Origin: an uncultured Pseudacidovorax sp.
Lineage (GTDB): Bacteria > Pseudomonadota > Gammaproteobacteria > Burkholderiales > Burkholderiaceae_C
DNA length: 64,000 nucleotides
Direction: 5' to 3'
Assembly (NCBI RefSeq): GCF_913773995.1
Contig: NZ_CAJYES010000110.1
Coordinates: forward strand, 1-64,000
This document shows, piece by piece, positions 32,046-35,309 of this stretch (its first letter is position 1; each line of letters starts with the position of its first letter). The position numbers and the translations under genes are program-made. The notes below the pieces were generated by a model. The model searched no databases. It worked only from the letters and a program-made list of their open reading frames with translations, and had not been told where the DNA came from.

Positions 32046-33083
32046 ATGACAAGCAATGTTCGTATCGGCCTGACCGGCGCCGCGGCGCTGGCGGTGGGGG
32101 GCGCGGTGGCGCTGGGCGTGGGCTCGGGCACGCTGCTGTCGCTGTTCACGCAGGCGGTGATCTACGGTGTCTTCGCCTCGGGCGTGGGCCTGCTGCTGCG
32201 GCAGAACGGCATGGTCAGCTTCGGCCATGCGGTGTTCTTCGGGCTCTCGGGCTACACCGTGGGCATCGTGATGGAGCTGGGCTGGATGCCGGCCGAGCTG
32301 GCCATCGTGGCCACGCTGGCGGCGCTGATGCTCTTCGCGCTGCTGGTGGGCCTGGTGATCGTGCGCGTGCCCGGGGTGGCCTTCAGCATGATGACGCTGG
32401 CCATCGGGCAGATGTTCTTCCTCACCGCCTCGCGCTCGCGCGGGCTCACCGGCGGCGCCGACGGCATGAACATCAACTGGCCCTCCACGCTCTTCGGCGT
32501 GCCGCAGTCGCAACTTCTGCAGCCGGCCGTGCTCTTCATGGTGTGCTGGACGGTGCTGGTGCTCACGCTGCTGGTCCTGGCGCTGCTGCTGCGCGGACGC
32601 TTCGGCAGCGTGACCGAGGCGGTGCGCGACAACGAGGAGCGCGCCCGCTTCATCGGCCTGCGCACGCTGCTGCCGCGTGCCGCCATCTATGCGCTGTCGG
32701 CCGGCGTGGTGGCGGTGGCGGGGCTGCTGTCGGCACTGAACACCGGCTTCGTCTCGCCCGAGGCGCTGCACTGGAGCGTCTCCGGTGTGGCGCTGATGAT
32801 GGTCGTGGTCGGCGGCTACAAGGCGCTGTGGGGCCCGCCGCTGGGCGCCATCGTGTACTTCATGTTCAAGGACGTGCTGGGCGACTGGGCCACGCACTGG
32901 ATGGCCATCTTCGGCGTGGCGCTGATCACCGTGATCGTGTTCTCGCCCACCGGCATCGCCGGAGCGCTGCAGAAGCTGTGGAACCCCAGGCGGCGCGATG
33001 CGGCATCGCCCGCCGCCGCGAGTGCCGGCCACACGGCCGCACCCGCCACGCCCGTGGCGCGCCCCGCCACCTCGGCCCGCTGA
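32046..33083 (+). CDS. livM: Branched-chain amino-acid-type ABC transporter permease (LivM family)
   Basis: 345-aa permease of the same family. It includes LLLRQNGMVSFGHAVFFGLSGYTVGIV, where GxxSFGHAxFFGxGAY is the LivM hallmark, and IGLRTLLPRAAIYALSAGVVAVAGLLSALNTGFVSPEALHWSVSGVALMMVVVGG. The C-terminal 30 residues are an Ala/Pro/Arg cytoplasmic tail. It begins 41 bases after livH. Its natural partner ATPase gene livG would start at 33112 but is displaced by an insertion sequence. Confidence 0.93.
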   Translation: MTSNVRIGLTGAAALAVGGAVALGVGSGTLLSLFTQAVIYGVFASGVGLLLRQNGMVSFGHAVFFGLSGYTVGIVMELGWMPAELAIVATLAALMLFALLVGLVIVRVPGVAFSMMTLAIGQMFFLTASRSRGLTGGADGMNINWPSTLFGVPQSQLLQPAVLFMVCWTVLVLTLLVLALLLRGRFGSVTEAVRDNEERARFIGLRTLLPRAAIYALSAGVVAVAGLLSALNTGFVSPEALHWSVSGVALMMVVVGGYKALWGPPLGAIVYFMFKDVLGDWATHWMAIFGVALITVIVFSPTGIAGALQKLWNPRRRDAASPAAASAGHTAAPATPVARPATSAR

Positions 33084-33126
33084 GCCGCATCGCAAGCAGG
33101 AGACAACAGGCATGAGACATCCGGTG

Positions 33127-34335
33127 TCAACCCTCTTGAGAAATTTCGATGCGACAAGCGCTGGAATGGACAGCGGGGTCGTAGGCGCAGCCATCGGTCC
33201 AGATACGCCAGAGCACACGAGTCCAGGCGCGAGCCAATATGCGCACTGCGTGCGGATGATCGCAGCCGCGCTTGCGCGCGGCGTGGTAGACGCTGGCGGC
33301 CCAAGGGCTGGCATGGCGGGAGTTATCAGCCAGGCAAGTGATGGCGCGGCGCAAGCGGTGGTTACAAGCCCATCGGAAGGTGACGGCGCGGCTCTTGCCG
33401 GACTGGTAGGTGACGGGCACGACGCCGGCCTCGGAGCACAACTGCTCGGCACTGGCGAAGCGCTGGGGCACATCGCCCAGTTCGGCCAGGATCTGCGCGG
33501 CGCAGATGCAGCCGGCGCGCGGCAGCGACATGACCGAGACGGCCTGTGGCAACTGCCCCATGGCTTGAGCGATGTGGCCGTCCAGGGACTTGATCTGAGC
33601 TGCGAGCGGCTTGAGCAGGGCCACCAGGGCCAAGGCAGCCGTGGCCTGGGCCTGGGCGAGCGCAGGTTCGCAAAAGCTGGGCGCAGCGGCTTGCAGGCGT
33701 TCGAGCAGCGCGTCGGGAGAACGCCGGCCGCTGTAGCCATGGCGTTTGCAGAAGGCGGCGATCTGGCGGGCTGTGAGTTTGCGCGCGGTGGGCCACTGCT
33801 CGATGAAGGCCAGGGCGATGGGCGAATCGAGGGCGGCGAAGATGCCTGTGGCGCCAGGCCAGTAGGCATCGAGCAGCGCGGTGAGCTGGTTGGCCAGGCG
33901 AATGCGCGTGCTCACCAGGTCGTCGCGTGTGCGCACCAGGGCGCGCAAGGCGCGGATGGCTGCAGACTGCGGCTGCACAGCGCGCCAGCGATGGCCGTCG
34001 GTACGCAGCAAGTCAGCCAGCATGAAGGCATCGCCCGCGTCGCTCTTGGCATTGCTGCTGCGGTAGCGCGGGCGGCTGGCCTTGACGGCGTTGGGATGGA
34101 TCGCAAAGACCTGATGGCCGGCGTCGAGCAGGGCGTCCACGATCAGGCCCGAGGGCCGCTCGATGGCGATGGGCAAGGCTTTGCCAAAGGCAGCGAGTGC
34201 ACGTTGCAGCTCACCGAGTCCTTGGCGATCGTGGTTGATGGTCAAGTGCTTGAGCACGCTGCCCTGGGCGTCGATCACGCACACCGCGTGCGAACGGTAG
34301 GCCCAATCCAGGCCGACAAAGACACTGAGAGTCAT
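33127..34335 (-). CDS. IS110-family transposase (DEDD recombinase)
   Basis: 402-aa transposase. The N-terminal DEDD_Tnp_IS110 domain starts LSVFVGLDWAYRSHAVCVIDAQG, with the first catalytic Asp in GLDWA. It continues with PIAIERPSGLIVDALLDAGHQVFAIHP, which carries the Glu, and SSNAKSDAGDAFMLADLLRTD with the Asp pair (KSDAGDA). The C-terminal Transposase_20 domain has VSVMSLPRAGCICAAQILAELGD, with the conserved Ser expected in SEAGVVPVTYQSGKS. Complete and intact. The ATG at 34335 is preferred over one 48 bases upstream because the conserved core begins there. Confidence 0.93.
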   Translation of the reverse strand: MTLSVFVGLDWAYRSHAVCVIDAQGSVLKHLTINHDRQGLGELQRALAAFGKALPIAIERPSGLIVDALLDAGHQVFAIHPNAVKASRPRYRSSNAKSDAGDAFMLADLLRTDGHRWRAVQPQSAAIRALRALVRTRDDLVSTRIRLANQLTALLDAYWPGATGIFAALDSPIALAFIEQWPTARKLTARQIAAFCKRHGYSGRRSPDALLERLQAAAPSFCEPALAQAQATAALALVALLKPLAAQIKSLDGHIAQAMGQLPQAVSVMSLPRAGCICAAQILAELGDVPQRFASAEQLCSEAGVVPVTYQSGKSRAVTFRWACNHRLRRAITCLADNSRHASPWAASVYHAARKRGCDHPHAVRILARAWTRVLWRIWTDGCAYDPAVHSSACRIEISQEG

Positions 34336-34384
34336 GGACAACCTCCATGGGTTTGGGTTAAGACTGTCCGTGTCGGAAGGCATG

Positions 34385-34570
34385 GCGGGACGCTCATAAA
34401 TTGGCGCTCCAGCTGGGTAGGCGTGGCGCTACATCCGGTGGCCCGTCGTGGCCTTCCGGCACCTCGGGTGCTGCAGGTCTCATGCGGGCTGTCGAACAGC
34501 CAGCGCCACGGGCAGTCACCACGAGGGCACGGAAGTCGGTTCGCCACCTCAGCACCTGTCCGGGGCAGCG
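34385..34570 (-). ncRNA. Candidate bridge (seek) RNA of the IS110 element
   Basis: IS110-group elements carry, upstream of the recombinase, an RNA with a target loop and a donor loop. Here, in transposase orientation, a stem GGTGCTG / CAGCACC (plus 34550-34556 and 34467-34473) encloses GTGGCGCT (34502-34509), an apical hairpin GGCTGT-TCG-ACAGCC (34487-34501) and GCATGAG (34479-34485). GCATGAG is complementary to the core plus right target flank CTCATGC; GCGCT approximates the left flank ending TCGCT. A second region has CACCGGATGT (34431-34440), identical to the element's right terminus, then TTATGAG (34393-34399), complementary to the left-terminal CTCATAA. Order and strand logic match IS621. 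Confidence 0.6.
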
Positions 34571-34589
34571 TCAAGATGGAGGTTGCCTT

Positions 34590-35309
34590 ATGAGCGACTA
34601 CGTGCTGCAGGCCCGCGACGTGGCCATCCACTACGGCGGCGTGAAGGCGGTGGACGGCGTGGAGCTGACGCTGGAACGCGGCCAGATCCGCGGCCTGATC
34701 GGCCCCAACGGCGCCGGCAAGTCCACCGTCATCGACGCCATCACCGGCCGGCGCAAGCTCACCCGCGGCCAGGTCTTCCTGCGCGGCGAGGACGTGAGTG
34801 CGCTCGGCCCCGTGCAGCGGCGCCAGCGGGGGCTGTCGCGCAGCTTCCAGCGCACCAGCGTCTTTGGTCAGATGCGCGTGCGCCGGCAGGTGGCGCTGGC
34901 CTCGCACTGCATGAACCCCAAGGACAGCGAGGCCGATGCGCAGGCCGTGCTCGAAGAGCTGAACCTGGCCCACCGTGCCGACGACGTCGCCGAAGACCTG
35001 GGCTACGGCGAGCAGCGCCGTCTCGACCTGGCCCTGGCCCTGGTCGGTCGGCCCACCGTGCTGCTGCTGGACGAGCCCATGGCCGGCCTCTCGGTGCAGG
35101 AATCGCACGACCTGGCGCGCCACCTCAAGGCGCTGACCTCGCGCTGGAACGTGTCGGTGCTGCTGGTGGAGCACGACATGGACGTGGTGTTCGGCATCAG
35201 CGACGCCGTCACCGTCTTCGAACTCGGCCGCGTGATCGCCAGCGGCGAGCCTGCCGCCGTGCGCGCCAATCCGCGCGTGCGCGAGGCCTACCTGGGGAGC
35301 GCCGCATGA
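34590..35309 (+). CDS. livG: Liv-type ABC transporter ATPase LivG
   Basis: 239-aa ABC ATPase. Walker A GPNGAGKST at about residues 38-46, the Q-loop region RSFQRTSVF, the signature as LGYGEQRRLDLALAL (a LivG-type variant of LSGGQ), Walker B VLLLDEPMAGL, and the H-loop VEHDMD. Length is slightly shorter than usual LivG (about 250) but all motifs are present. Its native ribosome site was separated by the IS; the IS end now places GGAGG 7 bases upstream of the ATG at 34590. The stop overlaps the livF ATG. Confidence 0.93.
   Translation: MSDYVLQARDVAIHYGGVKAVDGVELTLERGQIRGLIGPNGAGKSTVIDAITGRRKLTRGQVFLRGEDVSALGPVQRRQRGLSRSFQRTSVFGQMRVRRQVALASHCMNPKDSEADAQAVLEELNLAHRADDVAEDLGYGEQRRLDLALALVGRPTVLLLDEPMAGLSVQESHDLARHLKALTSRWNVSVLLVEHDMDVVFGISDAVTVFELGRVIASGEPAAVRANPRVREAYLGSAA

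What the first reader, a model, noticed from the sequence alone, without database searches (positions are those of the whole stretch)
34385..34594. IS110 element carries a readable bridge-RNA layout that matches its own insertion site
Seen: in the 250-bp non-coding end upstream of the transposase, transposase orientation, a GGTGCTG/CAGCACC stem encloses GTGGCGCT, a GGCTGT-TCG-ACAGCC apical hairpin and GCATGAG. GCATGAG is the complement of the core plus right target flank (CTCATGC). Further on come CACCGGATGT, identical to the last ten bases of the element's right end, and TTATGAG, the complement of core plus left end (CTCATAA). Known: IS110-group elements such as IS621 use an RNA with a target loop then a donor loop, and a CT core. 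Inference: this is a functional bridge RNA, caught with its target. The left-target guide match (only GCGCT vs TCGCT) is the weak point. A TTGACA box lies in the right end (plus 33125-33130), as expected if a circle-junction promoter forms.
Basis: partly seen in the sequence, partly recalled or inferred. Interest (0 to 1): 0.8.

Follow-up and report, generated by a model that had tools for sequence, protein, structure and literature searches.

The report
Jumping gene that preserves host translation
A small jumping gene carries an RNA that chooses where it lands, at a short sequence that holds both a stop and a start signal, and it appears built so that the neighbouring host gene can still be read after it has landed.

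Summary
The element (33117-34594, minus strand) is an IS110-group insertion sequence with a bridge RNA (about 34538-34368). In relatives the guides covary with what they should pair with (17 sites, 14 elements; left target 1/20000 permutations as good, right target 0/20000), and the two-loop fold shows compensatory changes.

The core CTCAT is the complement of ATGAG, which holds a start and a stop codon. In 24 of 24 elements with both ends, from two phyla, length is 2 mod 3, and in 23 of 24 one antisense frame is open across the element, bridge-RNA gene included, ending at the regenerated start codon. Substitutions outside the transposase do not favour third codon positions, so openness rather than a protein seems kept. 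Likely role: ribosomes cross the element and restart on the host gene. IS900's hed frame is the precedent.

The parts
33117..34594 (-). IS110-group insertion sequence, 1478 bp counted with one CTCAT core copy
   Evidence: Pfam DEDD_Tnp_IS110 E 1.9e-38 and Transposase_20 E 5.6e-15; NCBIfam transpos_IS110 202.9 bits, cut-off 140; ends conserved in relatives; empty site in a congener
33127..34383 (-). transposase CDS (longest ORF; the part used for searches starts at 34335)
34368..34538 (-). bridge RNA region
   Evidence: covariance model hit 195.6 bits (the window is a member of the model); fold and covariation
34453..34535 (-). target-binding loop: stem 34535-34512 / 34474-34453 and apical hairpin near 34500-34488
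   Evidence: helices 1 and 2
34502..34510 (-). left target guide CGTGGCGCT
   Evidence: covaries with left target across relatives; poor fit in this copy
34479..34485 (-). right target guide GCATGAG
   Evidence: 7 of 7 to CTCATGC; RTG-RT 0/20000 permutations
34431..34440 (-). left donor guide CACCGGATGT
   Evidence: 10 of 10 to right end
34393..34399 (-). right donor guide TTATGAG
   Evidence: 7 of 7 to core plus left end
34590..34594 (-). core CTCAT at left end; read on + strand it is ATGAG, the start of the LivG-like gene
33112..33116 (-). core CTCAT at right end; read on + strand it is the host ATGAG
33112..34593 (+). antisense frame, 493 codons plus stop, open across the whole element; TGA stop overlaps ATG of the host gene
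   Evidence: no Pfam or NCBIfam match up to E 1
34578..34582 (+). GGAGG Shine-Dalgarno-like sequence in the left end, 7 bases before the regenerated ATG
   Evidence: sequence
33098..33103 (+). host AGGAGA Shine-Dalgarno-like sequence, now upstream of the antisense frame
   Evidence: sequence
34569..34574 (-). TTGACG, possible -35 box of the bridge RNA
   Evidence: TTGAC or TTGAT 38-39 bases before the RNA motif in 14 of 15 proteobacterial elements, 0 of 6 Streptomyces-group elements; no promoter pair reaches the scan threshold
33125..33130 (-). TTGACA in the right end, possible half of a circle-junction promoter
   Evidence: TTGAC in the right ends of 21 of 21 elements, but the proteobacterial ends were found with a pattern that contains it; no full promoter by scan
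34590..35309 (+). host gene: branched-chain amino acid ABC transporter ATPase (LivG-like)
   Evidence: Pfam ABC_tran 1.1e-29, BCA_ABC_TP_C 3.7e-12

Best explanation
This is an IS110-group insertion sequence that encodes a bridge RNA upstream of its DEDD recombinase. The RNA has a target loop (left guide 34510-34502, right guide 34485-34479) and a donor loop (guides 34440-34431 and 34399-34393) and directs recombination between the circular element and a site built round CTCAT. Shown here by comparison: element, fold, guides, covariation with ends and targets. Inferred from IS621: circle intermediate, strand exchange, RNA-guided targeting. Because CTCAY is the complement of RTGAG, the target holds a start codon and a TGA stop; in the window the element sits on the start codon of a host gene with its transposase antisense to that gene. 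It brings its own Shine-Dalgarno-like sequence and start codon for that gene, plus an antisense frame open from end to end (shown). Inferred: host ribosomes enter that frame, cross the element, stop at the TGA that overlaps the regenerated start and re-initiate, so the operon keeps being translated and transcribed. The confidence given is for the bridge RNA and its guides; the ribosome passage is about even odds (see the section on the most novel reading).
For: Family: (ISCro4 9t56 E 1.2e-9, IS621 8wt6 E 5.7e-9). Guides, 17 sites from 14 elements: left target 69 of 119 positions against 50.1 +/- 4.4 permuted (1/20000); right target 105 of 136 against 85.0 +/- 3.4 (0/20000); right donor 85 of 119 against 61.6; left donor 163 of 170 against 140.0 (both 0/20000); four wrong pairings no better than permuted. 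Fold. Antisense frame: length 2 mod 3 in 24 of 24 elements with both ends, 15 distinct lengths; open in 23 of 24 (L081 has one internal stop; L043 stops one codon early and is counted open). In one search (21 of the 24) the region outside the transposase had 0 stops in this frame in 21 of 21, while each of the other two antisense frames is stop-free in 1 of 21, and its 11 distinct lengths are all 1 mod 3. Plasmid annotation puts a host start exactly on the left core in 5 of 5 annotated Streptomyces loci, and a host stop on the right core in 2 of these 5. Pfam finds domains in 9 of 11 upstream frames that end at the target TGA.
Against: No RNA or protein data. The window's left guide fits no better than chance. 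In GC-rich DNA the codon-aligned antisense frame is often open anyway: 10 of 19 automatically called genes of the window; dinucleotide shuffles leave the non-coding part open 7-21% of the time per element. Elements are related, some of the Streptomyces ones nearly identical, so counts are not independent. L081 breaks the open frame. GCATGAG lies at gene ends or starts in up to 16 of 40 background sites, so landing at gene boundaries (7 stop-type, 6 start-type of 18) need not exceed the motif's own bias. At 7 of 18 proteobacterial sites (L002, L009, L012, L038, L039, L069, L073) I found no gene start or stop at the target; at L038 the annotated amidohydrolase CDS beside the right end reads the same way as the transposase. 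The window's own upstream frame has no Pfam domain. The Shine-Dalgarno match is weaker in several relatives.
Confidence: 0.85

Rival explanations
1. The antisense frame is a real gene, as proposed for hed of IS900: a protein with its own function, made only when the host supplies a start.
For: IS900 has a frame spanning the whole element on the complementary strand that lacks its own RBS and start (PMC8141618). The frame is kept open in 23 of 24 elements here.
Against: In the part outside the transposase, substitutions between relatives fall about evenly on antisense codon positions 1, 2 and 3 and few differing codons are synonymous, e.g. L010-L011 29/28/28 with 6 of 47 synonymous (16 pairs). 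No Pfam or NCBIfam match for the window's frame. The part opposite the transposase could not be tested this way.
Confidence: 0.15
2. The open antisense frame is a by-product of GC-rich codon usage and shared ancestry, with no function.
For: The frame is codon-aligned with the transposase, so there only TTA, CTA and TCA codons close it; 10 of 19 window genes lack them too. L081 has an internal stop.
Against: Lengths of the region outside the transposase vary (244-415, 11 values) but stay 1 mod 3 in 21 of 21; in L010 a one-base gain in the RNA goes with a two-base gain before it. The frame stays open there in 21 of 21. The stop overlaps or abuts the regenerated start.
Confidence: 0.2
3. Ordinary IS110 element whose target merely happens to contain ATGAG; copies at gene boundaries are those that did least harm.
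For: Background GCATGAG sites are also rich in gene boundaries. Insertions without a boundary exist (7 of 18: L002, L009, L012, L038, L039, L069, L073).
Against: Does not explain the conserved reading frame, the overlapping stop, or the left-end Shine-Dalgarno-like sequence.
Confidence: 0.2
4. The matches are chance in a GC-rich non-coding stretch; no bridge RNA.
For: The single-sequence fold is only mildly more stable than shuffles (z -1.92, 8 of 200). No Rfam match. The left guide of this copy is at chance.
Against: Covariation of fold and guides across relatives and out-of-sample model hits.
Confidence: 0.02

Closest known systems
IS621 and ISCro4 (IS110 group, bridge RNA)
   Same: Recombinase of the same family. 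Passages of PMC11208160: IS110-group elements have a long left end with the bridge RNA in it, and internal loops that pair with target and donor. Recalled for IS621: target loop before donor loop, CT core
   Different: Only distant sequence similarity. Shared end repeat is CTCAY. The target holds a start and a stop codon (IS621 uses REP elements, recalled). A whole-element antisense frame is not mentioned in the passages I saw of PMC11208160 and PMC11187229 (term searches).
IS900 of Mycobacterium avium subsp. paratuberculosis with its hed frame
   Same: A frame on the complementary strand spans the whole element and lacks its own RBS and start; target motif CATGNNNNNNTCTCCTT (PMC8141618, passages), which I read as a start codon with a Shine-Dalgarno sequence on the other strand
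   Different: IS900 itself was not fetched or aligned. Here the frame is linked to guide matches, shown in 23 of 24 elements of two phyla, and shows no sign of protein-level selection outside the transposase.
IS110 elements of Variovorax plasmids (NZ_LR594673.1, NZ_LR594692.1)
   Same: About 89% identical DNA over the whole element, same left-end start and right-end bases, same donor guides
   Different: Different left-target guides; that of L039 matches its target 7 of 7, the window's 3 of 7

Membership tests
IS110 family, IS110 group | DEDD (RuvC-like) plus Transposase_20 recombinase | tested here: met
IS110 family, IS110 group | Long non-coding left end upstream of the recombinase, short right end | tested here: met
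   211 or 259 bp (by start codon chosen) against 10 bp from stop codon to right end
IS110 family, IS110 group | Catalytic residues in place | not tested
   the PDB alignment was not checked residue by residue
Bridge RNA | Conserved two-loop structure with covariation | tested here: met
   of the 10 two-sided pairs 8 lie in the target loop and 2 in the donor loop
Bridge RNA | Right-target and donor guides complementary to target and ends | tested here: met
   and exact over 7, 10 and 7 bases in the window
Bridge RNA | Left-target guide complementary to target | tested here: inconclusive
   met across relatives, not met in this copy
Bridge RNA | RNA is transcribed, binds the recombinase and is required | not testable with these tools
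   no expression data at hand
IS900-type element with hed | Antisense frame spanning the element, start supplied by host | tested here: met
IS900-type element with hed | Insertion at translation initiation signals | tested here: met
   window only: ATG of LivG-like gene with AGGAGA upstream; across the 18 sites 6 are start-type by rule
IS900-type element with hed | Clade membership of the recombinase with IS900 | not tested
   IS900 was not fetched and no tree was built; the two mycobacterial plasmid hits I fetched are 50-51% identical

The most novel reading that the evidence does not exclude
A branch of IS110 elements across at least two phyla is translation-transparent. The bridge RNA selects a site that holds a stop and a start codon, and the whole element, including the bridge-RNA gene itself, is kept free of stops in one antisense frame without selection on the protein made. 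The ends regenerate a stop overlapping a start, with a Shine-Dalgarno sequence, so ribosomes cross the element, Rho termination is avoided and downstream host genes stay on. One stretch of DNA is then constrained three ways: guide RNA, recombinase and ribosome corridor.
Probability: 0.5. Interest if true: 0.78.

Novelty: new variant of a known kind. Interest (0 to 1): 0.6.

Why it matters
It would join two subjects: bridge RNAs (2024) and the hed frame of IS900 (1997), whose function is given as unknown in PMC8141618. The two bridge-RNA papers whose text I searched by term do not mention IS900. If right, it explains how an insertion into an operon can be nearly harmless, why some IS110 elements prefer translation signals, and what hed is for. 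It also gives a set of natural guide-target pairs, useful for learning bridge RNA pairing rules and the tolerance of a poor left guide.

Tried and rejected
Rfam search of the window and of 34300-34650 at E up to 1: nothing. Viral contigs: no relative by protein, one right end by pattern (L063), no RNA by pattern. Genome searches in order (399 genomes, E up to 1e-120, up to 4 candidates scored each), class (369, 1e-90, up to 5) and genus (15, 1e-80) found only the window's own copy at those cut-offs. Bulged pairing for the left guide: it improves the window from 3 to 5 of 7, 9% of random sites do as well. Circle-junction promoter: the scan finds no promoter-like pair in 33050-34650 as it stands; the joined circle was not scanned. 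Gene-boundary enrichment beyond the motif itself: not shown. Synonymous shuffling of the transposase is uninformative because it keeps the codon counts. Left ends were chosen by match to the donor guide before the frame was looked at (for Streptomyces, where L067 and L078 had a second candidate without such a match). Left out of the guide test: L004 (left flank missing), L068 (two candidate left ends), L074, L047, L063 (partial), L065, L075, L076 (no left end found), and the Streptomyces-group, mycobacterial and Nonomuraea loci, which were read by eye. No right end was found for L083 and L085. One search gave wrong counts for the window element because its slice was one base short; corrected. 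Model R1 also gave weak reverse-strand matches in L078, L079 and L067 (E 0.0046, 0.061, 0.42) and one at window 4296 (E 0.99).

Full report
What is there. The minus strand of 33117-34594 is an IS110-group insertion sequence. The protein matches DEDD_Tnp_IS110 and Transposase_20, NCBIfam transpos_IS110 above its cut-off, and by sequence the solved ISCro4 and IS621 recombinases. One copy was found in its genome. A same-genus genome has the uninterrupted site with nearly identical flanks (L014), so insertion was clean and left CTCAT at both ends. The host gene, starting at 34590, is a LivG-like ABC ATPase.

Relatives. The closest are two Variovorax plasmid copies, about 89% identical over the full element. 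Others at about 66-72% DNA identity came from family and genus genome searches and one genome-contig scan. I fixed both ends in 18 insertions of 15 elements, nearly all from Burkholderiales-type hosts, with L004 titled Lysobacteraceae and L003 only Proteobacteria. L004 lacks its left flank, so 17 insertions of 14 elements enter the guide test. Four of the 18 are identical copies in one genome, G199.

Bridge RNA fold. On 15 elements (A1) the consensus fold has a target loop closed by 34535-34512 / 34474-34453, an apical hairpin, and a donor loop. Of 615 cells 98.0% pair, 10 of 41 pairs change on both sides, and none of 500 shuffles reaches either value. Eight of the ten lie in the target loop; the donor loop is mostly invariant. 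A model of this fold finds the RNA in 16 of 16 other IS110-related loci given to it, from Variovorax and Mesorhizobium to Streptomyces, Nonomuraea, Pseudonocardia and Mycobacterium, and in 0 of 7 control loci (24 sources including the window). Three of these loci also give weak matches on the other strand. Single-sequence folding is weak evidence.

Guides. As a set, the guides fit their own elements' sequences better than those of other elements. The target tests are the cleanest, because flanks are host DNA: left 1/20000, right 0/20000. Donor guides and ends share descent, so those permutation values overstate independence, but four states of the left end (CTCATAA, CTCATTG, CTCACTG, CTCATCA) are each mirrored in the RNA. 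Four wrong pairings were no better than permuted. Right guides follow the target where it changes from CAT to CAC: L009, L012, L013, L069. Against this: the window's left guide is at chance; L003, L012 and L053 also match poorly (2, 2 and 1 of 7 without a bulge); L038's right guide differs at the first core base; L043 and L011 have one right-guide mismatch next to the core.

A start and a stop codon in the core. CTCAT read on the other strand is ATGAG. In the window it is the start codon of the LivG-like gene. In L003 the site is the junction between a transketolase-domain frame ending at TGA and a lipoyl-domain frame starting at ATG. Pfam domains are found in 9 of 11 upstream frames that end at the target TGA (ten, the window's; the window and L073 have none) and in 5 of 9 downstream frames. 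Plasmid annotation places a host start exactly on the left core in 5 of 5 annotated Streptomyces loci (L079 has no annotation) and a host stop on the right core in L067 and L080. By an automatic rule 7 of 18 sites are stop-type and 6 of 18 start-type; GCATGAG elsewhere in the window and fetched loci gives 6 and 10 of 40, so the motif itself is boundary-rich and extra enrichment is not shown. At 7 of 18 sites neither Pfam nor the rule shows a boundary.

The antisense frame. Reading from the right-end core across the element, one frame is open to the left-end core, where its stop overlaps or abuts the regenerated start (TTATGAG in the window, TAATGAG in Streptomyces). This holds in 23 of 24 elements with both ends: 15, 6, 2; the 24th, L081, has one internal stop. 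L043 stops one codon early and is counted as open. Length is 2 mod 3 in 24 of 24, with 15 distinct lengths. The region outside the transposase (21 elements) has 11 distinct lengths, all 1 mod 3, and no stop in this frame in 21 of 21, while each of the other two antisense frames is stop-free in 1 of 21. The frame is codon-aligned with the transposase, so inside it only TTA, CTA and TCA would close it; none occurs in the 20 elements nor in the window. That part alone is weak, since 10 of 19 window genes lack them too. No IS110 elements of other branches were run as a control.

Protein or corridor? In 16 pairwise comparisons of the part outside the transposase, substitutions are spread about evenly over the three antisense codon positions and few differing codons are synonymous. 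That argues against a conserved protein. It fits selection for passage of ribosomes. Inside the transposase the two frames cannot be separated this way. The window's left end also carries GGAGG seven bases before the regenerated ATG, while the host's own AGGAGA now precedes the antisense frame. The left-end match to a Shine-Dalgarno sequence is clear in WIN, L038, L039, L010, L011 and weaker in L013, L073, L004 and the Streptomyces group (read by eye).

Prior knowledge. IS900 has a complementary-strand frame, hed, spanning the element without its own RBS or start, and a target motif CATGNNNNNNTCTCCTT (passages of PMC8141618; the 1997 paper itself seen only as a title in its references). Term searches of PMC11208160 and PMC11187229 show no mention of IS900 or antisense (passages only read). 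PMC11208158 was seen in a listing only. Searches of the open-licence library listed no paper whose title or abstract start links bridge RNA with such a frame; only part of each result list was shown, and subscription journals and preprints are not held.

Verdict. Bridge RNA: almost certain by comparison, untested by experiment. Translation-transparent design: the frame rule is well supported, the purpose is inference.

Noticed in passing
L009, L002, L012, L004, L013 left ends (e.g. L002 918-1000): These relatives carry an extra 100-150 bp in the left end with a large palindrome (GGTTGTCCACGGCGGCGGTCGG...CCGACCGCCGCGGTGGGCAACC), absent from the window element. The added lengths keep the antisense frame. 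Four others (L043, L069, L072, L073) have left ends of similar length whose sequence I did not inspect. Similar palindromes lie on 4 plasmid records of Variovorax and Achromobacter.
   Followed up: partly
L039 1177-1181 and 1242-1246: Two copies of the left-end start (CTCATAAGGCAACCTCC) 65 bp apart; the outer one is the annotated start codon of an alpha/beta hydrolase, like a scar of an earlier insertion.
   Followed up: no
L069 right flank: The element sits on a target CTCACTGGACTAC that looks like the left end of a related element, so one IS may have inserted into the end of another.
   Followed up: no
G199: L010, L053, L061, L062: Four identical copies whose left flanks share a GCGGCC motif about 6-14 bases from the core, as do several other sites; it lies mostly outside the guide and may mark a repeated intergenic sequence.
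   Followed up: no
L064 (Variovorax paradoxus VAI-C) 2506-2683: Bridge RNA and a left end present without a transposase in the (incomplete) gene table: perhaps a decayed or non-autonomous copy.
   Followed up: no
L081 (Nonomuraea): Right target guide and target read CTGAG instead of ATGAG; the TGA is kept, the ATG is not, and this is the one element of 24 whose antisense frame has an internal stop.
   Followed up: partly
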